Virus record (IMG/VR): IMGVR_UViG_3300023176_003965
Coordinates: 1-58,357 of that record
Reading direction: 5' to 3' (one strand)
Length of the DNA: 58,357 bases
Source: a virus
Part shown: positions 44,654 through 57,733 of the stretch, in pieces
How positions within the stretch are numbered: the stretch's first letter is position 1
How the letters are laid out: each line of letters begins with the position of its first letter
The notes under the pieces: model-generated
Told to the model about the DNA's origin: nothing
What the model saw: only the letters and a program-made list of their open reading frames with translations
Database searches by the model: none
Program-made: the position numbers and the translations under genes

Positions 44654-45889
44654 TTGACCATTACTCTTCGACCTCATCAACAGCGAGCGGTTGATGCTAT
44701 GTCTATCAATCAGAAAGGCACTGTTGTGATGCCTACTGGGGCAGGAAAAACTCTGTCTATGATTACTCACGTCAAAAACATTTTTGCATCTAATGATGGT
44801 GCTAAAACTATTGTTGTGATTGTTAGTCCTCGTATTCTGCTTTCTCAACAACTTTCTTCCGAGTTTCTTGAGCAGATTGATAATGTTGCTGTAATGCACG
44901 TTCATAGTGGAGATACTCACCACTTCAGCAGTACCAAACCTAACATTATTCACAACTGGTCTGCACAAGCATACAGTAAGCAACTTATCTTTACTACCTA
45001 TCATTCTCTGCACCGTATTCAGGAAGCAGGTCTTAATGTTCATACCATTCATTTTGATGAAAGTCACAACTCGATCAAGAAAAACTTTTTCCCTGCCACC
45101 AAGCATTTCTCTTCTACTTCTAACTTTTGCTTTTTCCACACTGCTACTCCCGTTTATTCTGCGACTAACAACAAACCTGGGATGAACGATGCTGAAGTTT
45201 ATGGTCAGGTGATTTGTAAAGTTCCTGCACCTGAACTTGTGAGTGGTGGGTTTATTGTTCCTCCTAAAGTGAGTGTGAAGCAACTTGATGTTTCCTCCTC
45301 TAACATCTATGAGAGGGACTGTAAGCACCTTCTAGACACTGTTGAGGGTGAATGTATCAATAAGGGTCTAATTTGTGCTAAATCCACAAAACAGATTGTT
45401 GGGTTGATGTCTAATACCAGTTTCTTTGAGGAGATGCAGGAGCGTGGTTATTCTGTTCTTTACATCACTGCAAAAACTGGTGCTGTGATTGATGGTAAGA
45501 AAGTCAATCGTGAGACATTCTTTGATACTCTAAACTCTTGGGCGAAGGATGATGATAAGAAGTTTATTGTTCTCCATCACTCTATCATTGCAGAAGGCAT
45601 CAATGTATCTGGTCTTGAGGCAGTTGTGTTTATGCGCTCTATGAACTACATTGGTATTCTGCAAAGTGTTGGTCGCACTTTGCGACTGCATCATCAGGAT
45701 GCTGCGGACATGCGCTCTGGTGCTATTCCTGCTGGTCAGTATCAACTTTACCGCAAACCTTTCGGTAAGGTAGTCATCCCTACTTATGAAAATGATAAGG
45801 TTGGTATTGCGACTGCGAAGAAAGTCCAAAGGGCACTGGATGTTGTATTCCAGCAGGGTGAAGTGTGTGAAACTATTATTAAGAGGTGA
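44654..45889 (+). CDS. SF2 DEAD/DEAH-type helicase (411 aa)
   Basis: An ATP-dependent nucleic-acid helicase of superfamily 2. Motifs: Q-like RPHQQRAVDA (6-15), Walker A PTGAGKT (27-33), DESH (135-138), TATP (163-166), and a C-terminal helicase half with GINVSGLEAVVF and SVGRTLRL (motif VI). Related in organisation to UvsW/RadD-type helicases. The start is TTG 44654; the next ATG would cut into the first motif. Promoter just upstream. Confidence 0.88.
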   Translation: MTITLRPHQQRAVDAMSINQKGTVVMPTGAGKTLSMITHVKNIFASNDGAKTIVVIVSPRILLSQQLSSEFLEQIDNVAVMHVHSGDTHHFSSTKPNIIHNWSAQAYSKQLIFTTYHSLHRIQEAGLNVHTIHFDESHNSIKKNFFPATKHFSSTSNFCFFHTATPVYSATNNKPGMNDAEVYGQVICKVPAPELVSGGFIVPPKVSVKQLDVSSSNIYERDCKHLLDTVEGECINKGLICAKSTKQIVGLMSNTSFFEEMQERGYSVLYITAKTGAVIDGKKVNRETFFDTLNSWAKDDDKKFIVLHHSIIAEGINVSGLEAVVFMRSMNYIGILQSVGRTLRLHHQDAADMRSGAIPAGQYQLYRKPFGKVVIPTYENDKVGIATAKKVQRALDVVFQQGEVCETIIKR

Positions 45890-45892: not shown

Positions 45893-46090
45893 ATGTCTGA
45901 AGGATTTACTACCGGAAAGTGGGAGTACGATACTCTCTATGCTGCTGTTCCTTTGATGGGAAGCAAATCTAAACTTGTGATTATTCACAAGGGTCAGCAA
46001 CTCAAAGTGTGTAGGAATGAGCAATCTGCCCGAAACTTTATTGAGAAACATAGAAAGGGTAAATCAGTGGGTAAATTGCCTCTCAATTAA
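45893..46090 (+). CDS. Hypothetical basic protein (65 aa)
   Basis: Starts 3 bp after the helicase stop; co-transcribed. MSEGFTTGKWEYDTLYAAVP and a KVCRNEQSARNFIEKHRKGK helix, ending KLPLN. The TAA stop is the first part of copy 1 of the 39-bp element. Confidence 0.65.
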   Translation: MSEGFTTGKWEYDTLYAAVPLMGSKSKLVIIHKGQQLKVCRNEQSARNFIEKHRKGKSVGKLPLN

Positions 46091-46125
46091 AGTTACTCAC
46101 CTCCACATTGTCCTTATAGTGTAAG
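46087..46125 (+). promoter_or_regulatory. 39-bp conserved promoter-like element, copy 1
   Basis: TTAAAGTTACTCACCTCC then ACATTGTCCT then TATAGTGTAAG. Contains the upstream TAA stop; TATAGT is a -10-like box; the next ATG is 10 bp downstream. Confidence 0.8.
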
Positions 46126-46135
46126 CATCAAACTA

Positions 46136-46273
46136 ATGAACGATTTCTTTGAAAAAGATCTTCCTGGTGAGATCCTTGACCTGACTGATGAAACAATCAA
46201 TCAACTTCTCGATGAAGAAGAACCCAAAAAGTTCAACTTCGATGAGTATCTTTCTGCAAACTACGACTACTGA
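46136..46273 (+). CDS. Small acidic protein (45 aa)
   Basis: ATG 46136, stop TGA 46271-46273. MNDFFEKDLPGEILDLTDET then an acidic DEEEPKKF and SANYDY end. No ribosome binding site, as for most genes behind the 39-bp element. Function unknown. Confidence 0.55.
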   Translation: MNDFFEKDLPGEILDLTDETINQLLDEEEPKKFNFDEYLSANYDY

Positions 46274-46279
46274 TTTCTA

Positions 46280-46489
46280 ATGTATTTTCACGACATTCTC
46301 CGCCAAATGGAAGACCTTCGCAAACAATGGAAGGCACAAGATTTCCGATACACAAAAGAGCAGAAAGAGCAGTATGAAATGCTTCTTGCACTTCGACGTG
46401 CTCGTGTAGCACAATTTTATGAAGAAGGTCGTGTTGCTGTATCAAAAGCAAAAACTACTAAGAAAGTTGTTGTTGAAGAGGAGGACTGA
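46280..46489 (+). CDS. Small helical protein (69 aa)
   Basis: A charged helix (LRQMEDLRKQWKAQDFRYTK...LLALRRARVAQFYEEG) with a basic then acidic tail. Six bp after the preceding gene, in the same unit. A GC-rich hairpin follows. Confidence 0.6.
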   Translation: MYFHDILRQMEDLRKQWKAQDFRYTKEQKEQYEMLLALRRARVAQFYEEGRVAVSKAKTTKKVVVEEED

Positions 46490-46508
46490 ACCACTTCAAT
46501 AACTGTCA

Positions 46509-46536
46509 CCCTATCCCTTGTTTTCGGGGGGTGGGG
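46509..46536 (+). terminator. Very stable GC-rich hairpin
   Basis: CCCTATCCC (46509-46517) pairs with GGGGTGGGG (46528-46536) allowing G-U pairs. No T-tract. TTGTTT (46518-46523) and TATTGT (46541-46546) are spaced 17 bp apart and could form a weak promoter. Confidence 0.55.
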
Positions 46537-46547
46537 ATGTTATTGTA

Positions 46548-46554
46548 ATAAATA
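46548..46554 (+). promoter_or_regulatory. Late promoter box ATAAATA
   Basis: ATAAATA lies 24 bp before the internal-head-protein candidate at 46579, a late-gene context. Confidence 0.7.
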
Positions 46555-46578
46555 ATAAGAAGATTTACTTTACCACTG

Positions 46579-47256
46579 ATGAAGACCTTTAGGGAATTTT
46601 GCAAAGAAGCATACGATGCTGATTTAATGAGATCCAGCACGATCCGTAAAGGTGGTGAAGGTGGAAGAATTGGTAGAGAAAGAAGACAAGATCCTCAACA
46701 AACTCGCAGAGTTAAGGCAGTTGGTGGTGGTAAAACTGAACCAGTAGTTCAGAAACCAAGAAAAGACATTGGTAAAGATAGACCAAAAGCAAAAGTAACG
46801 GCACGTCAGGAACAACCACAGCAGGAAAGAGGTTCTGCCGATGTTAGAGCAAAAGCAGCAGCGGCAGCAAAAGAAGAGAGAAGAAAAGCAGCATTAGCAA
46901 GACGTGCTGCTAAATCTGGCGGTGGAGAAGCAAAGAAATCCACTACATCTTCCCAAGATCTTAGTAAGCAAGCAGATAAACTTCTCACTAAAAAGAAAGA
47001 AGAACCCAAAAAGACTGAATCTAAACCACGTCGTCAGTGGAGAACTGCTGAAGGCGGTAGAATGACTCGCCAAGAGAGAGATCAGGCAAGAAATAGAGAG
47101 AAGACAGCAGCAGCACAAAAGACCAAGAAGAGTGCTACTGAAATCCTTGCAAAGATGCGTAGTGAGTATGAAAAAGGTGGTGGAAAGTGGAACTCTAAAG
47201 TTGCAGTTCAGATGAGAGCAAAAGCAAAGAAAGCAGCACAAGCACTTGGAAATTGA
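46579..47256 (+). CDS. Candidate internal head protein with T4-type capsid-targeting sequence (225 aa)
   Basis: MKTFREFCKEAYDAD matches the capsid targeting sequence of T4 internal proteins (MKTYQEFIAEA), which packages them into the prohead and is cleaved by the prohead protease after a Glu. The rest is extremely basic and Ala/Gln/Lys/Arg rich (KAAAAAKEERRKAALARRAA, KSKPRRQW-like parts), as expected for a DNA-binding protein injected with the genome. It is the only late-box gene inside an early-looking region. Role as injected host-takeover or DNA-condensing protein is inferred. Confidence 0.7.
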   Translation: MKTFREFCKEAYDADLMRSSTIRKGGEGGRIGRERRQDPQQTRRVKAVGGGKTEPVVQKPRKDIGKDRPKAKVTARQEQPQQERGSADVRAKAAAAAKEERRKAALARRAAKSGGGEAKKSTTSSQDLSKQADKLLTKKKEEPKKTESKPRRQWRTAEGGRMTRQERDQARNREKTAAAQKTKKSATEILAKMRSEYEKGGGKWNSKVAVQMRAKAKKAAQALGN

Positions 47257-47262
47257 CCTGAA

Positions 47263-47301
47263 TTAAAGTTACTCACCTCCACATTGTCCTTATAGTGTAA
47301 G
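47263..47301 (+). promoter_or_regulatory. 39-bp element, copy 2
   Basis: Same consensus with ACATTGTCCT and TATAGTGTAAG; 14 bp before ATG 47316. Lies 6 bp after the previous stop. Confidence 0.8.
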
Positions 47302-47315
47302 GACACAACCACACC

Positions 47316-47852
47316 ATGACCTATTCTCTCCAACTTCCCCCCACAATTAAGAAGGGATGGGAGAACTCTCCTCTGAAAAATCTTCCTAACTGTACTCCAC
47401 AGTTCAAAGGTAATCTTGGCACAGTTTTTATTCGCCAATACTTTGAGCAGAAAGGTGTATCTACTGAGAAGATTAGTGATGAGGGTGATTTGATTGTTGA
47501 TGGTCGTAAGAGTGAAGTAAAAACTGCTCTGGTTTCATATAAATTCAATAAGAGTGGTTATGTGAATGAAACTCTCTGGTGGAATCAAATCCGACCTCTG
47601 CAATCTGGTTGGGAATTGCTTCATCTTGTAGCAGTTTATCCTGATAAAGTTTGTATCTGGGAATTTGACCGTGATAATGGTCTTATGCTTGCAGAATCTA
47701 CTGGTGGATGTGAGCACACTGGGCAAGGTGATGAGAAAGGTCTTCTTGCTGTTCAGATTGATAAGAAAAAAACTAAAACTAACTTTGACCTTCTGGGTAA
47801 GTATGGTAAACTTATTGCAGAGATTGATGTAAATGATATTCAGATTTCCTGA
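47316..47852 (+). CDS. PD-(D/E)XK endonuclease-like protein (178 aa)
   Basis: Residues 55-70 (DEGDLIVDGRKSEVKT) give the nuclease signature Asp58 ... Glu67-x-Lys69. The following WWNQIRPLQSGWELLHLVAVYPD (about 91-113) is of type II restriction-enzyme style. It overlaps the adenine methyltransferase gene by ATGA at 47852. A restriction-like or host-DNA-degrading endonuclease is inferred; specificity cannot be read. Confidence 0.65.
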   Translation: MTYSLQLPPTIKKGWENSPLKNLPNCTPQFKGNLGTVFIRQYFEQKGVSTEKISDEGDLIVDGRKSEVKTALVSYKFNKSGYVNETLWWNQIRPLQSGWELLHLVAVYPDKVCIWEFDRDNGLMLAESTGGCEHTGQGDEKGLLAVQIDKKKTKTNFDLLGKYGKLIAEIDVNDIQIS

Positions 47853-48661
47853 TGAAACAAAACAAGAGAGTAACAGGTAAAGAACAGTATTACACTCCAG
47901 AGCAAACAGCAATAGAGTGCATCAATCTCCTCGATGAAGTTCATCGGGGAGATACTTATCTTGAACCTGCTGGTGGAACTGGTGCATTTATTGACCCTTT
48001 AATTGAACTGAATAGAAATGTAGTGTCTTATGACATTGAACCAAAGCATAGTTCAGTTCAACGAACAGAAGATTTTCTTCTGGAAGACTTATCACATCTC
48101 TCTAATGTAATTACTATCAGCAACCCACCATTTGGTAGAGCAAATAAACTTTGTATCCCATTTTTTAACAAGTGTGCTGAAGTATCAACTCACATTGGGT
48201 TTCTAATACCAAAAAGTTGGAGAAAGTGGTCGGTTATCAATCGTTTAGACAATAGATTCCATCTGGTTTCTGATACTGAACTGACTGTGGATTTTATACA
48301 TCCAAGTCAAGAGAAAAAGAGTAAAGGAAAACTTAACACAATTTTTCAAGTATGGGAAAAGCGTGATGAGTTGAGAGAAACTATCTCTGTGGTGGATAGG
48401 AATTACATTACCAAAACAAATCCTGATGATGCTGATGTTTCACTCACAGTATTTGGTAGAGGTTGTGGTAAGTTAAAGGAAGAGTTTCCAAGAGTTCCTA
48501 ACACAACTCAAATGTTCTTGAAGTGTAATGAACCTTGGGTAGTTGATGCACTTAAAACTGTTGATTTCTCACGGTTCTACAATAATGTAGCATTTGTTGA
48601 GGCACTATCAATTAAGGAAATCAATTTCTTACTCAATGAATACAAAGATTCCTCCAATTAA
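47852..48661 (+). CDS. DNA adenine methyltransferase, gamma-type N6A (269 aa)
   Basis: Motifs: QYYTP (12-16, motif X), EPAGGTGAF (38-46, AdoMet-binding motif I), Asp61 after the next strand (motif II), NPPFG (91-95, catalytic motif IV). The order X-I-IV is that of gamma-class N6-adenine methyltransferases. The C-terminal half would recognise DNA. It probably protects sites cut by the overlapping nuclease. TAA stop is in copy 3 of the 39-bp element. Confidence 0.85.
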   Translation: MKQNKRVTGKEQYYTPEQTAIECINLLDEVHRGDTYLEPAGGTGAFIDPLIELNRNVVSYDIEPKHSSVQRTEDFLLEDLSHLSNVITISNPPFGRANKLCIPFFNKCAEVSTHIGFLIPKSWRKWSVINRLDNRFHLVSDTELTVDFIHPSQEKKSKGKLNTIFQVWEKRDELRETISVVDRNYITKTNPDDADVSLTVFGRGCGKLKEEFPRVPNTTQMFLKCNEPWVVDALKTVDFSRFYNNVAFVEALSIKEINFLLNEYKDSSN

Positions 48662-48697
48662 AGTTACTCACCTCTAGATTGTCCCTATAGTGTGAAG
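48658..48697 (+). promoter_or_regulatory. 39-bp element, copy 3 (variant)
   Basis: Contains CACCTCT and TATAGT, then GTGAAG instead of GTAAG. The next gene starts 86 bp downstream, the longest leader of the family, with a hairpin at 48721-48780. Confidence 0.75.
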
Positions 48698-48720
48698 GGG
48701 AGACCCGACACAACCACCAC

Positions 48721-48780
48721 GAGAGGCAAAACAATAAGAGGGATCGACAAACAGATCTCCGCCTCTCATACTATTTTTTT
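48721..48780 (+). promoter_or_regulatory. Structured leader with hairpin and T-tract
   Basis: GAGAGGC (48721-48727) pairs with GCCTCTC (48761-48767); inside, GATC/GATC (48742-48745 with 48755-48758) pair. TTTTTTT (48774-48780) precedes ATG 48784. This resembles an attenuator or leader terminator for the following gene. Confidence 0.5.
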
Positions 48781-48783
48781 ATC

Positions 48784-49194
48784 ATGGCAACTCGCTCACG
48801 AATCGGTATCGAACTTCAAGATGGATCTATTCTCTCTTCTTATCATCATTGGGATGGATATCCTTCTTGGTTGGGTCGGATTCTCAAAACGCACTACAAT
48901 ACGAAGGCGAAAGTTTCCGAACTGATTGACGGTGGCGATATGTCTTCCTGCTGGACTGAAAAGTCTTGGGGAAAACTTCGCCCAGACCTTAGTTATGGTC
49001 CCGAATACTACTCTCAGCGTGGTGAAAATTGTCCTCCTCGTCTTGATAAAGACATGGAAGAGTTCTTCTCTATGGGTGAAGAATACTCTTACATTTTCCG
49101 CAATGGTAACTGGTTTGCCTACGATATGCACGAGTTTGAAGACAACGTAGCACCAGAACCTGTTGAGATTCCTTCTGGAGCACTTGCCTGCTAA
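48784..49194 (+). CDS. Conserved phage protein of the MATRSRIGIE family (136 aa)
   Basis: MATRSRIGIELQDGSILSSY, HHWDGYPSWLGRIL and a GPEYYSQRGENCPPRL block are the hallmarks of a widely spread phage family of unknown function. ATG after the T-run; upstream hairpin leader. The TAA stop is in copy 4 of the 39-bp element. Confidence 0.8.
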   Translation: MATRSRIGIELQDGSILSSYHHWDGYPSWLGRILKTHYNTKAKVSELIDGGDMSSCWTEKSWGKLRPDLSYGPEYYSQRGENCPPRLDKDMEEFFSMGEEYSYIFRNGNWFAYDMHEFEDNVAPEPVEIPSGALAC

Positions 49195-49231
49195 AAAGTT
49201 ATTCACCTCCAGATTGTCCCTTTAGTGTAAG
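49192..49231 (+). promoter_or_regulatory. 39-bp element, copy 4
   Basis: TAAAAAGTTATTCACCTCC, then AGATTGTCCC, then TTTAGTGTAAG; contains the upstream TAA. The next ATG is 10 bp downstream. Confidence 0.75.
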
Positions 49232-49241
49232 CACAAACCAA

Positions 49242-49532
49242 ATGATTATTTCACGCGAAAAACTTGAAATCAAACGCAGCGAATGGGAGTGTTACATTGA
49301 TACTCCCGATGTTGTGATTGAGGAAGTTAATGAACTTTTCCTTGAGATTCTAAACACTACTCACTCTCCTGTTCTAGCACAAAAGCGCACTTATGATGCG
49401 ATGTTTGATTATAGGAAGTATGGATTTATGGACTCTGAGTGTAATCAAACAGTAACAGATGTAATCAATAAGTATTACAATTCCAACATTGACCGTTGGG
49501 CATTTCTCTCCTACAATAAAACTTCAGCATAA
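49242..49532 (+). CDS. Hypothetical protein (96 aa)
   Basis: A helical protein (LEIKRSEWECYIDTPDVVIE, then MFDYRKYGFMDSECNQTV). Starts 10 bp after copy 4 with no Shine-Dalgarno. No family recognised. Confidence 0.6.
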   Translation: MIISREKLEIKRSEWECYIDTPDVVIEEVNELFLEILNTTHSPVLAQKRTYDAMFDYRKYGFMDSECNQTVTDVINKYYNSNIDRWAFLSYNKTSA

Positions 49533-49540
49533 TCAACATC

Positions 49541-49909
49541 ATGGCAAAAGTAGTTTACAACAATCGCGTCGGTGCTTTCAGTCTTTCTGATGCAGCACTT
49601 GAGAAAATGGTAGAACTTGGTTCTCAGTATGTAAAAGAGAATCCTGAGTATAATGCAACGAATGAGTTTGGTGATGGAACTGCTATGAAATGGTGGGAAG
49701 GTAAGTACATTTTTGAATGGGATTGCCCTCGCCACGATGAGATCCTAGTGCAAGTTGTGACTGAACTTGGAGAACTTGCAAATGGTGCTACAGCAACACT
49801 TCAAACCATAGATGTAGTGTCTAAGTACATTATTATGGGGATCCAGGGGTGGGAGCAAGTAGTTCAACCACAAGACATTCAGTGGGTTGAAGTATCAAAC
49901 CGTCTGTGA
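49541..49909 (+). CDS. Conserved cyanophage protein (122 aa)
   Basis: Starts 8 bp after the previous stop. GAFSLSDAALEKMVELGSQY, CPRHDEILVQVVTELGELAN and IMGIQGWEQVVQPQDIQWVE resemble a widespread small cyanophage/cyanobacterial family. No catalytic motif is clear. Confidence 0.65.
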   Translation: MAKVVYNNRVGAFSLSDAALEKMVELGSQYVKENPEYNATNEFGDGTAMKWWEGKYIFEWDCPRHDEILVQVVTELGELANGATATLQTIDVVSKYIIMGIQGWEQVVQPQDIQWVEVSNRL

Positions 49910-49911
49910 AA

Positions 49912-49949
49912 TAAAGTTACTCACCTTCAGATTGTCTCTAGAGTGTAAG
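49912..49949 (+). promoter_or_regulatory. 39-bp element, copy 5 (variant)
   Basis: TAAAGTTACTCACCTTC, AGATTGTCTC, TAGAGTGTAAG: the -10-like box is TAGAGT. The next ATG is 10 bp downstream. Confidence 0.7.
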
Positions 49950-49959
49950 GACTAAACCA

Positions 49960-50127
49960 ATGATTACAACTAAGGCACAAATGCTCAAGGTGATTGCTAC
50001 ATGCGCTCAACCGCATGTGCTCACTCGTGAAGAAAAGTTTCAAGTATTTTGTAGAGTATGTGATAACATGCTCAAAGAGGGTAGAATCACCAAAGCAAAC
50101 CACACTCGCTGGACTAATGTTTTCTAA
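49960..50127 (+). CDS. Small basic protein (55 aa)
   Basis: ATG 49960, TAA 50125-50127, overlapping the next ATG. MITTKAQMLKVIATCAQPHV, then VFCRVCDNMLKEGRITKANH. Two Cys near each other (C31, C34) could bind metal only with partners not visible. Helix-turn-helix-like order (EEKFQVFCRVCDNMLKEGRI) is possible. No family named. Confidence 0.6.
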   Translation: MITTKAQMLKVIATCAQPHVLTREEKFQVFCRVCDNMLKEGRITKANHTRWTNVF

Positions 50128-50648
50128 TGATTGACATTTCACGCTTTAATCTTGAAGAGTTTTTCGGTTGTGTAAATGCAACTAACACAACGCAGATGAA
50201 ATCTAATGCCTTCAAGACAATTCGCACTTGGTTGCAAGAAAAATCATTCGCAAAATGGAGTGATGGACAACTCCAATACGTTGGAGATTACAAAGACGGT
50301 GTAGACTTTACATCAGAAGATAATGTGAACTATGAGATGAAAGGTAAACTCAAAATGTTCAATAAGAACGGGTCAACTTCATCTATTGTTCTTAAAAACT
50401 TCCAATCAGACAACAAAGTAATCGAGAAAACATTTGATTACATGTTGTTAGTGGACACTGGATCTATGGCGATCGGTGTTACTGACTGGGATACTGTGGA
50501 AAAACGTATCTACTACACTCCCAAATCTCCGTGTGCTAAAGTAAAGTTTCTGCCTGGTGATTATACTATTCTTGCGAAGGACATTGTGCCTTGTGAGAAG
50601 ACTATCACCTCAGAAGAAATCCTTGAAAACCTTCAATCTATCCTGTGA
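50127..50648 (+). CDS. PD-(D/E)XK-like protein (173 aa)
   Basis: A nuclease-type pattern: DYKDGVDFTSEDNVNYEMKG gives Asp, then Glu-x-Lys (YEMKG), followed by FDYMLLVDTGSMAIGVTDWD. This D...ExK order is that of PD-(D/E)XK folds; no experimental counterpart is known to me. Coupled to the previous gene by TAATG. A third protein of this fold in the window. Confidence 0.55.
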   Translation: MIDISRFNLEEFFGCVNATNTTQMKSNAFKTIRTWLQEKSFAKWSDGQLQYVGDYKDGVDFTSEDNVNYEMKGKLKMFNKNGSTSSIVLKNFQSDNKVIEKTFDYMLLVDTGSMAIGVTDWDTVEKRIYYTPKSPCAKVKFLPGDYTILAKDIVPCEKTITSEEILENLQSIL

Positions 50649-50651
50649 ATT

Positions 50652-50828
50652 ATGAACCGAATTAGTGACCTTGCCGAAGAATATGAACTGACTTGTGATT
50701 ATGTAATCGAAGAGTTTTTCGTTGATGAGGATATAGAAATTCCTACACTTTATGTGTCGATGAAAGATAACATCATCATTTTCTACGATGCCGCTGATGA
50801 GAATGATGAGGTTTATTCCCTGAATTAA
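50652..50828 (+). CDS. Small acidic protein (58 aa)
   Basis: ATG 50652, TAA 50826-50828 inside copy 6. Starts with MNRISDLAEEYELTCDYVIE, then strands DIEIPTLYVSMKDNIIIFY. Acidic. No family recognised. Confidence 0.6.
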   Translation: MNRISDLAEEYELTCDYVIEEFFVDEDIEIPTLYVSMKDNIIIFYDAADENDEVYSLN

Positions 50829-50863
50829 AGTTACTCACCTCCAGATTGTCCCTACAGTGTAAG
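50825..50863 (+). promoter_or_regulatory. 39-bp element, copy 6
   Basis: Consensus with TACAGT as -10-like box; contains the upstream TAA. The next ATG is 16 bp downstream. Confidence 0.8.
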
Positions 50864-50879
50864 CACACGATCGAACCAA

Positions 50880-51047
50880 ATGATCTTAACTCACAAAGTT
50901 ATTACTCTCACTGAAGGTTCAGATGATCCTTTTACCATCGGGATTTATGATACTGAAGAGATTGCACAAAGGGTCGCTGATTCATACAATCTGATGTATG
51001 ATGCTTGGAACATTTTGGCGACTGCTCACGTTATTGAGAACAACTGA
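50880..51047 (+). CDS. Small protein (55 aa)
   Basis: ATG 50880, TGA 51045-51047; next gene follows without a gap. MILTHKVITLTEGSDDPFTI and a helical AQRVADSYNLMYDAWNIL. No family recognised. Confidence 0.6.
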   Translation: MILTHKVITLTEGSDDPFTIGIYDTEEIAQRVADSYNLMYDAWNILATAHVIENN

Positions 51048-51236
51048 ATGAAAACAACCACTGCAACTTATTCCATTCAAGTTACACAACCTGGAGGGCA
51101 TTTATCATTCTTAAAAGATATGCCAACCCGTCCTAAAACGCATAAAGGGATTAAAGCACAAAACAACAAATTGTGTAAATGGGTAGAAAAACAATACCCT
51201 AACTTTACTTCATACGACATTTCTCTTCTCGACTGA
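51048..51236 (+). CDS. Hypothetical basic protein (62 aa)
   Basis: MKTTTATYSIQVTQPGGHLS then KTHKGIKAQNNKLCKWVEKQ. Begins directly after the previous stop and overlaps the next ATG at 51236. Unknown function. Confidence 0.55.
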   Translation: MKTTTATYSIQVTQPGGHLSFLKDMPTRPKTHKGIKAQNNKLCKWVEKQYPNFTSYDISLLD

Positions 51237-51517
51237 TGAACTACACTCTCAAACAACTCCAAGAACGACTCAACAAACTGATCGAACAACAGGGTGAAGA
51301 TGCACATTGTGCCGCATGGATTTATACTAAGGAAGATTGTCATTTGAAGGATGAAAATGGTGAGATTGATTATGATAATGTTGTAGAAGATGCTGACGTT
51401 ATTGAACGTATCTTTGATGATGTTGGCAACATTGATTACATCTATCAGGTGATTCAGGAGTGCGTAGATGAAGTAACTGAAGAGCAACTAATGTTACAAC
51501 AGCAGGAGTTGGTCTGA
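51236..51517 (+). CDS. Hypothetical acidic protein (93 aa)
   Basis: A helical start (LKQLQERLNKLIEQQGEDAH) then an acidic domain with three Cys and a long terminal helix ending EEQLMLQQQELV. One base overlaps the previous stop. No domain named. Confidence 0.6.
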   Translation: MNYTLKQLQERLNKLIEQQGEDAHCAAWIYTKEDCHLKDENGEIDYDNVVEDADVIERIFDDVGNIDYIYQVIQECVDEVTEEQLMLQQQELV

Positions 51518-51519
51518 TT

Positions 51520-51852
51520 ATGTTATTCACTTCAGGTAAATCTTCCAACTCACACCTCACTCATAAGGTGTTTGAGTTCTTCACATCAAACTATGAAATC
51601 TCCAGTGATGTTGAGGTTTATCATACCAACCTAAGTGATGATAATGCTTTTGGATTCACTGAGGTGAACGGAGAGGAGCAATTCATCCAGATTCACAACA
51701 AACTGAGTGAAAAAGACTATGTTATCACTTTGCTGCATGAATTGGTGCATGTGACGCAAAACGAAGCAGGTGTGATTGATGATGAGGAAAGAGAGAATCA
51801 GGCATACAAATTAGAGAAGGTTTTGTATAACCAGTTTGCTAATCTTGTCTAA
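51520..51852 (+). CDS. HExxH zinc-metallopeptidase-like protein (110 aa)
   Basis: LLHELVHVTQ carries HELVH (residues 73-77) and is followed by EERENQAYKLE, as in ImmA/SprT-type zincin folds (HExxH ... E). Short but complete. It might cleave a host regulator or repressor (inference), or be an inactive binding protein. Last gene of a four-gene unit. Confidence 0.6.
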   Translation: MLFTSGKSSNSHLTHKVFEFFTSNYEISSDVEVYHTNLSDDNAFGFTEVNGEEQFIQIHNKLSEKDYVITLLHELVHVTQNEAGVIDDEERENQAYKLEKVLYNQFANLV

Positions 51853-51891
51853 TTAAAGTTACTCACCTCTAGATTGTCCCTATAGTGTAAG
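51853..51891 (+). promoter_or_regulatory. 39-bp element, copy 7
   Basis: Consensus with CACCTCT and TATAGT. Directly follows the previous stop; the next ATG is 10 bp downstream. Confidence 0.8.
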
Positions 51892-51901
51892 CAACCAACC
51901 G

Positions 51902-52096
51902 ATGATGAACATTTTTTCGATTGATGAACAACTGATAATGATGATTGACCGACTGAATACTGCAATCAATGTTTGCTATGAGGCACCTGATAATGAAGAT
52001 CAGGGTTATCCTTATGCTACAGGATATTCACGGTCTGCAATGATTGATGTAGCAAACGATTTGAGTAAAATTGTCGAAGAAATTCGACGCAATTAA
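51902..52096 (+). CDS. Hypothetical protein (64 aa)
   Basis: A helical small protein (FSIDEQLIMMIDRLNTAINV, then YSRSAMIDVANDLSKIVEEI). Stop TAA is in copy 8. No Shine-Dalgarno. Function unknown. Confidence 0.6.
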   Translation: MMNIFSIDEQLIMMIDRLNTAINVCYEAPDNEDQGYPYATGYSRSAMIDVANDLSKIVEEIRRN

Positions 52097-52131
52097 AGTT
52101 ACTCACCTTCAGATTGTCCCTATAGTGTAAG
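52093..52131 (+). promoter_or_regulatory. 39-bp element, copy 8
   Basis: Consensus with CACCTTC and TATAGT; contains the upstream TAA. The next ATG is 12 bp downstream. Confidence 0.8.
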
Positions 52132-52143
52132 CACAGAACCATT

Positions 52144-52332
52144 ATGAAACCAGAAGACATTTTCATCACAAACGACACTGCTAAGAATGATCCTATCATT
52201 CAGAAAGTGATGCAAGATTACATCAACGATTTGATGGCGCAGAAACAACGACGGGACAGAATCCGTGCTGGACTTGAACCTGCTCCAGCATACGATTCTT
52301 ACGGCACTTGGAACATTTCAGATCGCGATTGA
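52144..52332 (+). CDS. Hypothetical protein (62 aa)
   Basis: MKPEDIFITNDTAKNDPIIQ followed by a charged helix and a Pro/Tyr-rich end. First gene of a four-gene unit after copy 8. Confidence 0.55.
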   Translation: MKPEDIFITNDTAKNDPIIQKVMQDYINDLMAQKQRRDRIRAGLEPAPAYDSYGTWNISDRD

Positions 52333-52346
52333 GGAGTAAAACTAAC

Positions 52347-52502
52347 ATGAACCAACTCGAAATGCTGACTGCTCGTGAACAATTAATGGAGGACATTGAT
52401 TGTATCATCACTGAATACTTTCAGGGCATCGATGATGCTGAACTGAATCAAGTTACAGAGATTCTCTGTGATGCTGTCTGCAAAAACTTTCCCGCAAACT
52501 GA
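52347..52502 (+). CDS. Small acidic protein (51 aa)
   Basis: ATG 52347 is preceded by GAGGAG (52331-52336), a good ribosome binding site, so a longer frame from 52308 is rejected. Helical and acidic with three Cys. One base overlaps the next gene. Confidence 0.6.
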   Translation: MNQLEMLTAREQLMEDIDCIITEYFQGIDDAELNQVTEILCDAVCKNFPAN

Positions 52503-52708
52503 TGCAATTCCAAATCACTGAAATTGAGTTTGACCTGGATTGTGATGCCGCTGAAGAAGAATTAACCGAACAAGAACGTGTTGATTTGTATGAAGATTAC
52601 ATCGGCACATTCTGGGAGGCAGATGATGCTGACGATCTTGTAGATGAGATCACAAGTGCATCAGGTTGGTGCATCAATTCCATTGACTACCGTATCATTC
52701 TGAAATGA
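52502..52708 (+). CDS. Hypothetical acidic protein (68 aa)
   Basis: A very acidic protein (CDAAEEELTEQERVDLYEDY) with flanking strands FQITEIEFDLD and CINSIDYRIILK; a small alpha/beta fold is likely. The acidity would suit a DNA-mimic or inhibitor, but this is speculation. Overlaps the next start. Confidence 0.6.
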   Translation: MQFQITEIEFDLDCDAAEEELTEQERVDLYEDYIGTFWEADDADDLVDEITSASGWCINSIDYRIILK

Positions 52709-52911
52709 CTATGTTGACCACTTCTAAACTTGACCAACTCAAACTCAACTACGCAGAGATGATTGTTGAGGGTATGGATATGGATAGTCTCATCACATTT
52801 GCTGTTGAGAGTATTGAACAGAACATCAAAGATTGGGATGAAGATGATGTTAAGTCTGACATCCTTGATTGTTATGGTGAAGAAACCCTTGAAGGATTGA
52901 TGCCTGATTAA
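52705..52911 (+). CDS. Hypothetical acidic protein (68 aa)
   Basis: MTMLTTSKLDQLKLNYAEMI and an acidic helical rest (IEQNIKDWDEDDVKSDILD). Coupled to the previous gene by ATGA. TAA stop is inside copy 9. Confidence 0.6.
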   Translation: MTMLTTSKLDQLKLNYAEMIVEGMDMDSLITFAVESIEQNIKDWDEDDVKSDILDCYGEETLEGLMPD

Positions 52912-52946
52912 AGTTACTCACCTCCAGATTGTCCCTACAGTGTAAG
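52908..52946 (+). promoter_or_regulatory. 39-bp element, copy 9
   Basis: Consensus with TACAGT; contains the upstream TAA. The next ATG is 21 bp downstream, after an ACCAAACCAAAC-type leader. Confidence 0.8.
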
Positions 52947-52967
52947 CATCAAACCAAACCAAACAAA

Positions 52968-53648
52968 ATGGATCGCCAACAAGTCATCGCTAAAATCAAG
53001 TCGATGCTCAAACTTCAAGAGAGCACAGATTTTGATGGTGAAGCATCTGCTGCTGCGGCAATGATTGATAAACTGTGTGCAAAGCACGGTATCACTTTGC
53101 AGGAAGCAAAAGAGGTTCTTGCTGTTGATGAACAGTTCGCATCTTTCAAAAAGATGGATGTTGCTTTCACTCAGATTGTCAACGCTGTTGCTAAGTTTTA
53201 CGATGCAAAAGCATACGTCAAAACTGACATCAATGGTGCTAAAACTATTCAAGTGATTGGTAGTGAAGCGCAACAGATTCAGGTAAATCTTTACAGTGAG
53301 TTCCTGGTTGATGTTATGAACCGTGAGGCAGATAAGGCATACTCTGCTGAGAAGATTATTGCTCAACTGACTGGTGCTAACCTGAAGAGATCTTTTAAGA
53401 TTAACTTCAAGAAAGCATTTGCAATTCAGGTTGCTGATCGTCTCCGTGAGATGAAAAAAGAGGAGAATCGTGTTCACGAAGATAAGCAAGCAGTTGTTAC
53501 TGCACTGAGCAAAATGCGCTTCAATTCTAGCACTAAGTTCAGAGGTGCTTCTGGTGCTGGTGCTACTGCTGGCGCAGATGTGGGCAGCAATGTATCACTG
53601 CATAGGCAAACTGGTGGTAGAACTGCTAAACAACTTGCTGCTGCCTAA
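52968..53648 (+). CDS. DUF2786 protein (226 aa)
   Basis: The first 45 residues (MDRQQVIAKIKSMLKLQEST, DFDGEASAAAAMIDKLCAKH) match the DUF2786 domain, found in phages and bacteria. The rest is helical and basic, ending in a Gly/Ala/Thr-rich segment. ATG 52968 is chosen over an upstream in-frame start at 52929 that lies in the element. Role unknown; a terminator follows. Confidence 0.8.
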   Translation: MDRQQVIAKIKSMLKLQESTDFDGEASAAAAMIDKLCAKHGITLQEAKEVLAVDEQFASFKKMDVAFTQIVNAVAKFYDAKAYVKTDINGAKTIQVIGSEAQQIQVNLYSEFLVDVMNREADKAYSAEKIIAQLTGANLKRSFKINFKKAFAIQVADRLREMKKEENRVHEDKQAVVTALSKMRFNSSTKFRGASGAGATAGADVGSNVSLHRQTGGRTAKQLAAA

Positions 53649-53684
53649 ATAAAACATCTGTTAGGTGTGGTAACTCAACAGATT

Positions 53685-53711
53685 AAAAAGGATCCTTCGG
53701 GATCCTTTTTT
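53685..53711 (+). terminator. Strong (bidirectional-type) terminator
   Basis: AAAAAGGATCC (53685-53695) pairs with GGATCCTTTTT (53700-53710) over a TTCG loop, with T-run to 53711. Ends the DUF2786 gene before the HNH endonuclease. Confidence 0.95.
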
Positions 53712-53723
53712 AGTGTATAATAG

Positions 53724-53731
53724 TATAAATA
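53724..53731 (+). promoter_or_regulatory. Late promoter box TATAAATA
   Basis: TATAAATA lies 24 bp before the HNH gene at 53756. A TATAAT at 53716-53721 lies close by but no -35 box is visible. Confidence 0.55.
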
Positions 53732-53755
53732 ATAATACCACACCTAAACAGAATA

Positions 53756-54271
53756 ATGAAAGAATTATCTTTACCTTCTCAGGAGTATCTAAACGAACTT
53801 TTTACATACAATCCAGAGACAGGCACACTAACTAGAAAGAAAACTGTTAGAAGCAACGCTAAAGAAGGGCAAATAATAAAATCAAAAACTGGTGACGGTT
53901 ATTATAGAGTATCTGTAGATAATGTATCGTATAAAATACATAGATTGATTTGGAAAATGTATTATGGTGAAGACCCAGCAGATTTACAAATAGACCACAT
54001 TAACAGGGATAGAACTGATAATAGAATAATCAATCTGAGAGTTTCTACATCCCAAGAACAAAAGTTTAATCAATCCATAAGACTTGATAATAACAGTGGA
54101 TTTAAGGGAGTTTATAGACCGAAGGGCAGAAGAAAGTGGACTTCCAGAATAAAAAAGGACGGCAAATCTATACATCTTGGGACTTTCGACACACCAGAAG
54201 AAGCAAGTTTTGCCTATCAATCTAAGGCATTAGAGTTATTCGGTGAGTTTTACTCTGCGGGGTCTGATTGA
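53756..54271 (+). CDS. HNH homing endonuclease with AP2 domain (171 aa)
   Basis: LQIDHINRDRTDNRIINLR (about residues 78-96) is the HNH core (DH...N...N), and SGFKGVYRPKGRRKWTSRI ... GTFDTPEEASFAYQSKA is an AP2 DNA-binding domain. Typical free-standing homing endonuclease of T4-like phages. It has its own promoter and terminator context and ends at a 67-bp repeat shared with 55610. Not needed for growth; a mobile gene. Confidence 0.92.
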   Translation: MKELSLPSQEYLNELFTYNPETGTLTRKKTVRSNAKEGQIIKSKTGDGYYRVSVDNVSYKIHRLIWKMYYGEDPADLQIDHINRDRTDNRIINLRVSTSQEQKFNQSIRLDNNSGFKGVYRPKGRRKWTSRIKKDGKSIHLGTFDTPEEASFAYQSKALELFGEFYSAGSD

Positions 54272-54280
54272 TACAAACTG

Positions 54281-54309
54281 TGGAGGTGAATTAAAGTTAC
54301 TCACCTCCA
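54281..54309 (+). other. Perfect hairpin covering the element's CACCTCC
   Basis: TGGAGGTGA (54281-54289) pairs exactly with TCACCTCCA (54301-54309) over an 11-nt loop. The 3' arm belongs to the 39-bp element. The same hairpin is at 55628-55656. Confidence 0.85.
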
Positions 54310-54329
54310 GATTGTCCCTATAGTGTAAG
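54291..54329 (+). promoter_or_regulatory. 39-bp element, copy 10
   Basis: Exact consensus with TATAGT. The next ATG is 14 bp downstream. Part of the 67-bp repeat. Confidence 0.85.
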
Positions 54330-54343
54330 CAACGGATTCATCC

Positions 54344-54508
54344 ATGAAATCTTATCCACTCGGTATCGACAACCCCATCAAAGTTAAGGCAGTTTGGGGT
54401 TCACATAAGTGGGCACTTTACTGGAAAGATGATTTCACTAAGATCGCAACTTTCCCTAATGAGTTCACTGCAATGCAAGCACGTCAATCTATCATCGAAT
54501 CTCTCTGA
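54344..54508 (+). CDS. Small protein (54 aa)
   Basis: ATG 54344, TGA 54506-54508. MKSYPLGIDNPIKVKAVWGS, then a HKWALYWKDDFTKIATFPNE strand and a helix. A small alpha/beta fold; no family recognised. Confidence 0.6.
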   Translation: MKSYPLGIDNPIKVKAVWGSHKWALYWKDDFTKIATFPNEFTAMQARQSIIESL

Positions 54509-54510
54509 TT

Positions 54511-54663
54511 ATGATGAAACTTAATCTAACAGACAGACAATTAGAGATAATTCTTGATGCTGTTGAGGATTATGCTGTTCTAGTTGATGAGGATCTCGCT
54601 GACGATTGTAGTGAGATTCTTGACATTATCGAAGCACACGTTTCTAACAAACAAGACCAATGA
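54511..54663 (+). CDS. Small acidic protein (50 aa)
   Basis: ATG 54511, TGA 54661-54663 overlapping the next start. Helical and acidic (LTDRQLEIILDAVEDYAVLV). No family recognised. Confidence 0.6.
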   Translation: MMKLNLTDRQLEIILDAVEDYAVLVDEDLADDCSEILDIIEAHVSNKQDQ

Positions 54664-54890
54664 ACATTTACATCGCTGAGAATCAAGGTTGTGCCTATTC
54701 CATTTGTAGTGAAGGGGCACTTTATTACACTCCTTTGTATCAAGATGGAACGATGAATCTTGAGGATTGGAGTGAAGTTGATCTGATGAGTTTAATGGGT
54801 GAAGAAGAGAATCTTCGCCTGGAAGTTGATGAGATTCACGAGAAACTTATCGCAATGAGTAAGGCAATCGGAGAGTATTTCCAGCAATAA
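54660..54890 (+). CDS. Hypothetical acidic protein (76 aa)
   Basis: MNIYIAENQGCAYSICSEGA followed by strands and an acidic terminal helix (EENLRLEVDEIHEKLIAMSK). Coupled by ATGA. TAA stop is inside copy 11. Confidence 0.65.
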   Translation: MNIYIAENQGCAYSICSEGALYYTPLYQDGTMNLEDWSEVDLMSLMGEEENLRLEVDEIHEKLIAMSKAIGEYFQQ

Positions 54891-54926
54891 AAGTTACTCA
54901 CCTTGAGATTGTCCCTATAGTGTAAG
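54888..54926 (+). promoter_or_regulatory. 39-bp element, copy 11
   Basis: TAAAAGTTACTCACCTTG, AGATTGTCCC, TATAGTGTAAG; contains the upstream TAA. The next ATG is 28 bp downstream. Confidence 0.78.
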
Positions 54927-54954
54927 CAACCAATCAAACCAAAAATCTTTCTTT

Positions 54955-55188
54955 ATGTCAACTCCAATTTTCTCTATCTACAATAACATCGAAGCATGGG
55001 ATGACATCATGGGGCAAATGATTGCCTTTGTGAATGATACCAATGCCGACATCGATATGGCATACGATTGGGTATGTGAAATGATGGAAATTGACTCCTT
55101 TGTTGATAATCAAATCGCATGGGATTCTTTCTACAACACTTGGAAATCTTGCGACAATCGTAACTGCATTGAGTACATTGTTGACTGA
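54955..55188 (+). CDS. Hypothetical acidic protein (77 aa)
   Basis: A helical, acidic, Trp-rich protein (AWDDIMGQMIAFVNDTNADI, YDWVCEMMEIDSF). No ribosome binding site. No family recognised. Confidence 0.6.
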   Translation: MSTPIFSIYNNIEAWDDIMGQMIAFVNDTNADIDMAYDWVCEMMEIDSFVDNQIAWDSFYNTWKSCDNRNCIEYIVD

Positions 55189-55219
55189 TTAACATCAAAC
55201 CATCACAATCTCAGATGAA

Positions 55220-55258
55220 TTAAAGTTACTCACCTCCAGATTGTCCCTATAGTGTGAG
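55220..55258 (+). promoter_or_regulatory. 39-bp element, copy 12
   Basis: Consensus with TATAGT then GTGAG instead of GTAAG. The next ATG is 41 bp downstream. Confidence 0.78.
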
Positions 55259-55299
55259 GGACACACTTCACAAGCAAACTTTACATTTTTTCCAAAACA

Positions 55300-55614
55300 A
55301 TGTTCGCACAAACTATCAATTTCGTCGATGATGTTCTTGAGTATGATTATCAAGAACTCGCAAACAATCTGATCACTAATCTTATCACTATCGGAGCAAT
55401 TTGTGCTGTGATTATAGGTTCACTTTACAATCAACTGCGTAAGGTTAAGTTTGCAACACCTTATCAGATTGGGAATCAATTTTATTTCGGTGTGAATCTT
55501 ACACCTTCTGGTGATAATGATGAGCGTTTCGGTATTAGCATCAAAGACTATTATTTGGGTCTTTATGGTAAGCAACTGTGCTGGGGTAAACTTGATGAAA
55601 ATGGTTGCCTCTGA
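55300..55614 (+). CDS. Single-pass membrane protein (104 aa)
   Basis: An acidic N-terminus (residues 1-22), one membrane helix (NLITIGAICAVIIGSLY, about 28-44), then a beta-rich soluble domain with YQIGNQFYFGVNLTPSG. Location in the host membrane is inferred. Its stop is at the start of the second 67-bp repeat. Confidence 0.65.
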   Translation: MFAQTINFVDDVLEYDYQELANNLITNLITIGAICAVIIGSLYNQLRKVKFATPYQIGNQFYFGVNLTPSGDNDERFGISIKDYYLGLYGKQLCWGKLDENGCL

Positions 55615-55676
55615 TTGATACAAACTGTGGAGGTGAATTAAAGTTACTCACCTCCAGATTGTCCCTATAGTGTAAG
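55610..55676 (+). repeat. 67-bp exact repeat, copy B
   Basis: Identical to 54263-54329, including the perfect hairpin (55628-55656). Here no endonuclease gene precedes it. Confidence 0.92.
55638..55676 (+). promoter_or_regulatory. 39-bp element, copy 13
   Basis: Exact consensus with TATAGT within the 67-bp repeat. The next ATG is 23 bp downstream after an ACCAAACCAAACC leader. Confidence 0.85.
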
Positions 55677-55699
55677 GACACAACCAAACCAAACCAATT

Positions 55700-55891
55700 A
55701 TGAAACCATTTCCATACACTGAAGTCAACGCAATCGAGCGTGAAATGTGTGATCTTCGCGATGAAGTCACCCGTCTTCGGATTCAACTTGAGAACGCACA
55801 ATCCTGCCTTAATGCACTACAACGCAAGCGGACTGAGTTAATCAATGATCGTTCTGAAGGCAATCTTTTCGAGCAAATGTTTGGAGTCTGA
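55700..55891 (+). CDS. Small coiled-coil protein (63 aa)
   Basis: Mostly one heptad-repeat helix (EREMCDLRDEVTRLRIQLEN) followed by KRTELINDRSEGNLFEQMFG. Probably a dimer. Function unknown. Confidence 0.6.
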   Translation: MKPFPYTEVNAIEREMCDLRDEVTRLRIQLENAQSCLNALQRKRTELINDRSEGNLFEQMFGV

Positions 55892-55899
55892 TTAACATT

Positions 55900-56088
55900 A
55901 TGATTGCGATTGTAACACCAAAATCTAAGAAAGCACAGAATCGTTTCTGTAACTTAATGGACAAACTTCAGGAATGTTTTGTAGAGCAACATTTAGGAGA
56001 TAAAGTGTTCCTAACCTCTGCGAACAATAAGAATCACTTTTGGGTGAATCTGATTGATGACAATGACTGGGAAATTGAGTTGAATTAA
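55900..56088 (+). CDS. Hypothetical protein (62 aa)
   Basis: MIAIVTPKSKKAQNRFCNLM, then a strand VFLTSANNKNHFWVNLI. Small alpha/beta protein. TAA stop is inside copy 14. Confidence 0.6.
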   Translation: MIAIVTPKSKKAQNRFCNLMDKLQECFVEQHLGDKVFLTSANNKNHFWVNLIDDNDWEIELN

Positions 56089-56123
56089 AGTTACTCACCT
56101 CCAGATTGTCCCTATAGTGTAAG
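56085..56123 (+). promoter_or_regulatory. 39-bp element, copy 14
   Basis: Exact consensus with TATAGT; contains the upstream TAA. The next ATG is 10 bp downstream. Confidence 0.85.
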
Positions 56124-56133
56124 CAACAAACCA

Positions 56134-56472
56134 ATGATGATCACACAAACCAAACCACAATTCCTGACTGAAGCACTCATCGAAGTTCTCAACAATGAGT
56201 GGAAAGTTAATGCTCTTGAGTCCAATCGTTCTGTTTATCATCAACTTGAGATGGAGATTGGTCGCAAATACATTAAAGTTTGGCAGCGACTTGATCGCGA
56301 TGGTGTGAAAGATACCTCTCGCGGTTGCTGGATGTTTGTTGATAAGAACACTGGTGAATGTTACAAACCAAGTTCACATCGTGCTCCTGCAAAAGGTGTC
56401 CGCTATCTTATCACTCAGTTGGTAGATCATCCTCACATTTGTGACCAATACGGCAGTTTTTTATATCTCTGA
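56134..56472 (+). CDS. Hypothetical protein (112 aa)
   Basis: An alpha/beta protein with strands IGRKYIKVWQRLDRDG and GCWMFVDKNTGECYKPSS, resembling a small conserved cyanophage family. Two Cys are not arranged as a metal site. Followed by the HNH gene's own promoter. Confidence 0.65.
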   Translation: MMITQTKPQFLTEALIEVLNNEWKVNALESNRSVYHQLEMEIGRKYIKVWQRLDRDGVKDTSRGCWMFVDKNTGECYKPSSHRAPAKGVRYLITQLVDHPHICDQYGSFLYL

Positions 56473-56479
56473 TTGATAC

Positions 56480-56508
56480 TTGACTTTGGAATCTGTTTAT
56501 GATACATA
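56480..56508 (+). promoter_or_regulatory. Sigma70-like promoter of the second HNH gene
   Basis: TTGACT (56480-56485), 17 bp, TACATA (56503-56508). It starts within a TCTGATTGATAC segment shared with the 67-bp repeats. Confidence 0.55.
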
Positions 56509-56532
56509 GTAGGTGTTACTTCTAAATCTATT

Positions 56533-57039: not shown

Positions 57040-57074
57040 AGTTACTCACCTCCAGATTGTCCCTATAGTGTAAG
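57036..57074 (+). promoter_or_regulatory. 39-bp element, copy 15
   Basis: Exact consensus with TATAGT; contains the HNH stop TAA. The next ATG is 23 bp downstream. Confidence 0.85.
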
Positions 57075-57097
57075 CAACCAACCAAGAGAAACCAATT

Positions 57098-57451: not shown

Positions 57452-57452
57452 A

Positions 57453-57491: not shown

Positions 57492-57506
57492 CGTTACCAA
57501 TCGACT

Positions 57507-57722: not shown

Positions 57723-57733
57723 TTCCTCTTCAA

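What the first reader, a model, noticed from the sequence alone, without database searches (positions are those of the whole stretch)
47316..48661. Phage-encoded nuclease/adenine-methyltransferase pair resembling a restriction-modification system
A 178-aa PD-(D/E)XK-like protein (Asp58, Glu67-x-Lys69) overlaps by ATGA a gamma-class N6-adenine methyltransferase (QYYTP, EPAGGTGAF, NPPFG). Both follow one early-type element. Such a pair could cut host or competitor DNA while protecting the phage genome, a phage-borne restriction-modification-like attack module.
Basis: partly seen in the sequence, partly recalled or inferred. Interest (0 to 1): 0.75.

Follow-up and report, generated by a model that had tools for sequence, protein, structure and literature searches.

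The report
Restriction-modification gene pair in a cyanophage
A marine cyanobacterial virus carries, as one gene cassette, what looks like a DNA-cutting enzyme and the DNA-marking enzyme that would protect its own genome from it; relatives show the same marker enzyme with different cutters or with none, so this is a rarely documented but not unprecedented virus-borne restriction-modification weapon.

Summary
ORF 47316-47852 (178 aa) and ORF 47852-48661 (269 aa) overlap by one base (TGATG, not ATGA). They sit between two copies of a 16-copy directional early-promoter-like element in a T4-like cyanophage contig. An alignment-based AlphaFold model of the 178-aa protein (pLDDT 83, pTM 0.82) has a PD-(D/E)XK core; its best solved matches are the BisI-family restriction enzymes NhoI and Eco15I (Z 9-10) and the homing endonuclease I-Ssp6803I (Z 9), with PvuII lower. 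Asp58, Glu67 and Lys69 are invariant in 17 relatives. Cyanophage relatives match PADLOC's Type II restriction-enzyme model (to 9e-23). The MTase is gamma-class N6-adenine. The strongest evidence for a working pair is comparative. A nuclease of one of three types (A, B, C) abuts the MTase in 20 of 43 related viral contigs. Two contigs fuse both in one ORF. Partner type changes at least 12 times on the MTase tree. Type A also abuts an unrelated beta-class MTase in two marine viruses. Both genes are under purifying selection. I conclude: a probable Type II RM system, a new member of a known kind. Cleavage, methylation, shared target site and the 'attack' role are inferred, not shown.

The parts
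47267..47302 (+). early-promoter-like element upstream of the pair (AGTTACTCACCTCCACATTGTCCTTATAGTGTAAGG)
   Evidence: one of 16 directional copies at 46-58 kb, consensus AATTAAAGTTACTCACCTCCAGATTGTCCCTATAGTGTAAG
47316..47852 (+). 178-aa PD-(D/E)XK protein, probable Type II restriction endonuclease (phrog_6927 / T4-GC_685 family)
   Evidence: phrog_6927 1e-9; PADLOC REase_II 0.0085 for this member, 9e-23 for its S-RIM14 relative; AlphaFold pLDDT 82.6 / pTM 0.82; NhoI Z 9.8, I-Ssp6803I Z 9.2, PvuII Z 5.9
47852..48661 (+). 269-aa gamma-class N6-adenine DNA methyltransferase (phrog_5172)
   Evidence: PADLOC MTase_II 1.3e-28, phrog_5172 6e-38; motifs X, I, IV conserved in relatives
48662..48697 (+). 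next copy of the early-promoter-like element, directly after the MTase stop; closes the cassette
48721..48775 (+). stem-loop plus U-tract just downstream of the second element, terminator-like
   Evidence: -28.5 kcal/mol for the 101-nt stretch, z -4.7 against shuffles

Best explanation
The two genes form a compact Type II restriction-modification cassette carried by a T4-like cyanophage. Inferred working: (1) the infecting genome arrives already N6-methylated at the target site from its previous cycle; (2) the early-type element drives both genes soon after infection; (3) the nuclease, probably a homodimer, cuts unmethylated copies of the site in the host chromosome or in a co-infecting phage or plasmid; (4) the MTase completes methylation of hemimethylated progeny DNA, so the phage's own genome is spared. 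Shown here: gene anatomy, predicted fold, catalytic residues, conservation, pairing, purifying selection. Inferred: activities, common recognition site, timing, role. The cassette appears to move as a unit, bracketed by repeated promoter elements, in the way described for PeSL elements of T4-like phages.
For: Fold: AlphaFold model pLDDT 82.6, pTM 0.82; top solved matches NhoI Z 9.8, apo NhoI 9.5, I-Ssp6803I 9.2, Eco15I 9.0, then Holliday resolvase 6.7, PvuII 5.9, DpnI 5.6, EcoRV 5.0. Catalytic D58/E67/K69 invariant in 17 relatives. Relatives hit PADLOC REase_II at 9e-23 and 3e-10 to 2e-7. MTase: PADLOC MTase_II 1e-28. Pairing: of 43 viral contigs with an MTase relative, 20 have an abutting nuclease relative: type A in 15, type B in 4, type C in 1. 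Frames overlap in most; in L031 and L046 the nuclease is downstream. L049 and L050 fuse nuclease and MTase in one 492-aa ORF. The same MTase family pairs with type C in Blastococcus chromosomes. Partner type needs at least 12 changes on the MTase tree, against 18.6 in shuffles; within the window's own supported 6-row clade occur types A, C and none. Nuclease and MTase distances correlate over 13 pairs (Mantel r 0.48, 27 of 20000 permutations). Type A also abuts a beta-class MTase in P-SSM7 and overlaps one in single-cell virus AG-345-E15. dN/dS 0.11-0.18 for nuclease and 0.13-0.14 for MTase.
Against: No activity, methylome or recognition site is known. This nuclease itself scores only 0.0085 on the REase_II model. 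The fold match does not separate restriction enzymes from homing endonucleases or resolvases, and the best Foldseek E-value to the PDB was 7e-3, to MepB with poor superposition. Type A genes without an adjacent MTase exist: S-RIM14, S-SSM2, S-SSM4, S-BM3 and ACG-2014f and L071, although most of these genomes carry some other DNA MTase elsewhere. About half of the viral MTase relatives and most bacterial ones have no nuclease neighbour, so the MTase also works alone. The type B model was poor (pLDDT 63).
Confidence: 0.8

Rival explanations
1. The MTase is a solitary anti-restriction or regulatory enzyme, and the nuclease is an independent phage nuclease (host-DNA degradation or recombination) that happens to be its neighbour.
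For: Solitary MTase relatives are common: about half of the viral contigs, and a syntenic chromosomal copy in Luna-clade actinobacteria. Solitary type A nucleases occur in S-RIM14 and S-SSM4 directly after a core helicase.
Against: Abutting or overlapping pairs recur in 20 of 43 viral contigs in very different surroundings, with several nuclease types and with fusions. The helicase is core to cyanophages (418 records), so its nearness says little.
Confidence: 0.12
2. The 178-aa protein is a free-standing homing endonuclease of the I-Ssp6803I kind.
For: I-Ssp6803I ties with NhoI among structural matches (Z 9.2).
Against: Recurrent pairing and fusion with a modification MTase, with exchange against other nuclease types, is not expected of a homing gene. 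The family model that its relatives match is a restriction enzyme model.
Confidence: 0.05
3. The nuclease is modification-dependent, as NhoI and Eco15I of the BisI family are, and cuts modified DNA of host or rivals.
For: NhoI and Eco15I are the closest solved folds, and they need 5-methylcytosine (PMC11347163).
Against: BisI enzymes have QxK in place of (D/E)xK (PMC11347163); here it is E67-x-K69, as in canonical enzymes, and the paper names PvuII as the nearest canonical relative of that fold. Pairing with an m6A MTase would be self-destructive if m6A triggered cutting.
Confidence: 0.03

Closest known systems
Type II restriction-modification systems (paired REase and MTase genes)
   Same: PD-(D/E)XK nuclease and gamma-class m6A MTase in adjacent overlapping genes; PADLOC REase_II and MTase_II models match the family
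   Different: carried by a T4-like cyanophage under phage-type early elements; recognition site and activity unknown
BisI family (NhoI, Eco15I) and PvuII
   Same: closest solved folds of restriction enzymes (Z 9.8 and 5.9)
   Different: about 9-14% identity; no cytosine-modification partner; ExK rather than the QxK reported for NhoI/Eco15I
Virus-borne RM systems: chloroviruses and marseilleviruses (PMC7253447), Nitratiruptor phage NrS-3 R/M.Nph3I (PMC10734518), predicted Mom-REase fusions in jumbo phages (PMC7824862)
   Same: viral genome carries nuclease and protecting modification enzyme
   Different: other enzymes; the first infect eukaryotes, the second is a temperate phage, the third uses another base modification
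T4-GC_685 / phrog_6927 genes of cyanophages (S-ShM2, S-RIM14, P-SSM7, S-BM3)
   Same: same nuclease family; annotated 'restriction endonuclease' in S-BM3
   Different: those examined lack this MTase; P-SSM7 and AG-345-E15 instead have an adjacent beta-class MTase

Membership tests
Type II restriction-modification system | nuclease with a restriction-enzyme fold and intact active site | tested here: met
   AlphaFold PD-(D/E)XK core, NhoI/PvuII/EcoRV among best solved folds; D58, E67, K69 invariant
Type II restriction-modification system | DNA MTase with SAM and catalytic motifs | tested here: met
   motifs X, I, IV (NPPFG) conserved in relatives; PADLOC MTase_II 1e-28
Type II restriction-modification system | REase and MTase genes adjacent and conserved as a pair | tested here: met
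   one-base overlap; pair conserved in L002 and L028, in distant L006, L011, L039, L061; fusion in L049/L050
Type II restriction-modification system | separate enzymes without helicase or specificity subunit in the operon | tested here: met
   cassette bracketed by elements holds only two ORFs; the helicase at 44654-45889 lies outside and is a core cyanophage gene
Type II restriction-modification system | both enzymes recognise the same DNA sequence | not testable with these tools
   needs methylome and cleavage mapping
Type II restriction-modification system | methylation by the MTase blocks cleavage | not testable with these tools
   needs in vitro assay
gamma-class N6-adenine MTase | motif order X-I-IV with NPP(F/Y) | tested here: met
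   QYYTP aa 12-16, EPAGGTGAF 38-46, NPPFG 91-95
I-Ssp6803I-type homing endonuclease | shared PD-(D/E)XK fold | tested here: met
   Z 9.2, 116 residues aligned
I-Ssp6803I-type homing endonuclease | long, rare, intron-associated target site | not testable with these tools
   target unknown; no intron was searched for specifically
BisI-type modification-dependent enzyme | QxK active-site variant of the BisI structures | tested here: not met
   E67-x-K69, invariant in relatives; QVK/QIK in NhoI/Eco15I per PMC11347163

The most novel reading that the evidence does not exclude
One m6A MTase lineage acts as a fixed 'antidote' whose restriction-enzyme partner is repeatedly swapped among at least three nuclease types (A, B, C), lost or fused, in phages; in cyanophages the modules are exchanged as promoter-bracketed cassettes. 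Lytic phages would then carry an inter-phage arsenal of interchangeable restriction modules that excludes competitors lacking the same mark.
Probability: 0.4. Interest if true: 0.72.

Novelty: new member of a known kind. Interest (0 to 1): 0.55.

Why it matters
Phages are usually seen as the targets of restriction; a T4-like, presumably lytic, cyanophage that carries a complete cutter and its protector would use restriction as a weapon against the host or rival phages. It gives a testable function to phrog_6927, a cyanophage gene family of unknown function, and the exchange of nuclease partners on one MTase lineage is a natural experiment on how restriction enzymes and MTases become cognate.

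Tried and rejected
Pfam and NCBIfam gave no hit above cut-off for the nuclease, and only sub-threshold N6_Mtase for the MTase. The type B model is poor (pLDDT 63), so it was not searched; its PD...ExK motif rests on sequence alone. A helicase-nuclease (Type I/III-like) unit was considered because type A follows a helicase in S-RIM14 and S-SSM4, and dropped because that helicase is in 418 cyanophage records. Papers on Lake Biwa methylomes gave no motif for this MTase lineage in the passages read. No Rfam RNA in 46-50 kb. No recognition site could be inferred, and none is guessed.

Full report
OBSERVATION. The nuclease candidate runs 47316-47852 (178 aa) and the methyltransferase 47852-48661 (269 aa). 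They share one base (TGATG), not the four-base ATGA. One early-type element lies at 47267-47302 and another begins at 48662, right after the MTase stop, so the pair is a two-gene cassette between two copies. The element occurs in 16 directional copies between 46 and 58 kb, consensus AATTAAAGTTACTCACCTCCAGATTGTCCCTATAGTGTAAG.

WHERE IT IS. The window is a whole IMG/VR virus record of 58357 bases. Its baseplate region matches Synechococcus T4-like phages at 69-75%, and its helicase has homologues in 418 cyanophage records. It is thus a T4-like cyanophage fragment. A second IMG/VR contig holds the locus at 99.9% identity.

THE NUCLEASE. Pfam and NCBIfam are silent. It belongs to phrog_6927, of unknown function (1e-9), the T4-GC_685 cluster annotated 'restriction endonuclease' in S-BM3. 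PADLOC's REase_II model PDLC03515 scores it weakly (0.0085) but scores its cyanophage relatives strongly: S-RIM14 9e-23, S-SSM4 3e-10, ACG-2014f 6e-10, P-SSM7 2e-7. Across 17 relatives only M1, W15, G32, G35, D58, E67 and K69 are invariant: the catalytic triad is among the few fixed residues. AlphaFold with a 12-row alignment gives pLDDT 82.6 and pTM 0.82, with D58 at the start of a strand and E67-x-K69 on the next one. Against solved structures the best matches are NhoI (Z 9.8, 124 residues), I-Ssp6803I (9.2), Eco15I (9.0), archaeal Holliday resolvase (6.7), PvuII (5.9), DpnI (5.6) and EcoRV (5.0). Foldseek alone ranked MepB first at E 7e-3, with poor superposition. So the predicted fold is PD-(D/E)XK, while the choice between restriction and homing must come from context.

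THE METHYLTRANSFERASE. Motif order X (QYYTP), I (EPAGGTGAF), IV (NPPFG) is that of gamma-class N6-adenine MTases. It hits PADLOC MTase_II at 1.3e-28 and phrog_5172 at 6e-38. Relatives lie in 217 phage records, mostly rV5-like and phAPEC8-like coliphages at about 28% identity, and at about 44-55% in chromosomes of freshwater actinobacteria.

CONTEXT IS THE STRONGEST EVIDENCE. Profile searches of all frames in all MTase loci show: of 43 viral contigs with an MTase relative, 15 have a type A nuclease abutting it, 4 a type B nuclease (GGQGN..PD..ExK) and 1 a type C nuclease. In most the frames overlap. In L031 and L046 the nuclease lies downstream, so the order is not fixed. In L049 and L050 nuclease and MTase are one 492-aa ORF. 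Three Blastococcus loci have type C convergent with the MTase. Most other actinobacterial copies are solitary and syntenic. On the MTase tree the partner label changes at least 12 times (shuffles 18.6); the window's own supported clade of six holds type A, type C and no partner. The nuclease and MTase distances over 13 type A pairs correlate (Mantel r 0.48, 27 of 20000 permutations), although the nuclease diverges faster. These counts come from contigs found through the MTase, and some are near-copies, so they show recurrence and not an unbiased frequency. Types B and C are weakly related to each other, so they may be two branches of one family.

THE NUCLEASE ALSO HAS ANOTHER KIND OF PARTNER. 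In Prochlorococcus phage P-SSM7 a type A gene lies directly before two tandem beta-class adenine MTases. In single-cell virus AG-345-E15 it overlaps a homologue of the first by seven bases. Conversely, S-RIM14, S-SSM2, S-SSM4, S-BM3, ACG-2014f and L071 carry a type A gene without an adjacent MTase. All of these except L071's contig, which may be a fragment, have a D12-type or beta-class MTase elsewhere; whether that protects them is unknown.

SELECTION. Nei-Gojobori dN/dS is 0.16-0.18 (window against L002/L028) and 0.11 (L002 against L028) for the nuclease, and 0.13-0.14 for the MTase; window-MTase synonymous distances are near saturation. Both genes are kept as working proteins.

MECHANISM, shown and inferred. 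Shown: a predicted restriction-enzyme-like fold with intact active site, a gamma m6A MTase, one cassette, recurrent pairing, purifying selection. Inferred: virion DNA arrives methylated, early expression releases the nuclease on unmethylated host or rival DNA, and the MTase finishes hemimethylated progeny. Precedents exist for several roles: chlorovirus REases degrade host DNA, marseillevirus RM is proposed to exclude other viruses without cutting host DNA (PMC7253447), and a temperate Nitratiruptor phage has a working pair (PMC10734518). Jumbo-phage Mom-REase fusions are predicted to attack host or superinfecting phage DNA (PMC7824862).

MOBILITY. In ACG-2014f, isolates differ precisely at this gene: the type A gene of KJ019103 is replaced in KJ019146 by a 691-aa helicase-like gene plus a 337-aa MTase, with 95-96% identical flanks and about 61-bp repeats (stem-loop plus promoter-like) at the borders. 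This resembles the PeSL elements described for T4-like phages (Arbiol 2010 and Comeau 2014, cited in PMC4503421). In the window the second element is also followed by a strong stem-loop with a U-tract. That recombination at these repeats moves the cassette is an inference.

VERDICT. A probable Type II restriction-modification pair in a cyanophage: a new member of a known kind, with an unusual comparative story of partner exchange. The role as an attack module is reasonable but untested.

Noticed in passing
L022 2907-3987 versus L024 1770-4937 (ACG-2014f KJ019103 and KJ019146): Allelic swap at one locus: type A nuclease cassette in one isolate, 691-aa helicase-like gene plus 337-aa MTase in another, with 95-96% identical flanks and about 61-bp repeats at the borders.
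   Followed up: partly
window 46080-57800: 16 directional copies of a 40-bp early-promoter-like element, nearly every one just before a gene; one (48662) is followed by a strong stem-loop and U-tract at 48721-48775 (z -4.7).
   Followed up: partly
L075-L147 (Rhodoluna, Aquiluna and other Luna-clade actinobacteria): A solitary chromosomal MTase about 44-55% identical to the phage one, in conserved gene surroundings, suggesting a vertically kept housekeeping-type methylase.
   Followed up: partly
L049 2386-3864 and L050 2386-3864: Nuclease and MTase fused in one 492-aa reading frame in two viral contigs.
   Followed up: yes
L009, L012, L014, L052 and L046, L095, L105, L108: Two further nuclease types (B and C, weakly related to each other by profile, E 1e-5) sit beside the same MTase family; no Pfam or PADLOC match worth the name for type B; type C was scanned only against PHROGs (no hit).
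   Followed up: partly
window 50127-50648: 173-aa protein with D-x(n)-E-M-K (GVDFTSEDNVNYEMKGK) that could be another PD-(D/E)XK protein; no hit in Pfam, PHROGs or PADLOC.
   Followed up: no
window 51520-51852: 110-aa zinc-metallopeptidase-like protein (DUF6782 1e-6, Peptidase_M78 4e-5) in the early region.
   Followed up: no
BFVD H8ZND8 (Synechococcus phage metaG-MbCM1, 159 aa): Annotated 'Dam DNA adenine methylase' but matches the nuclease model structurally (E 6e-4), perhaps a misannotated type A nuclease.
   Followed up: no
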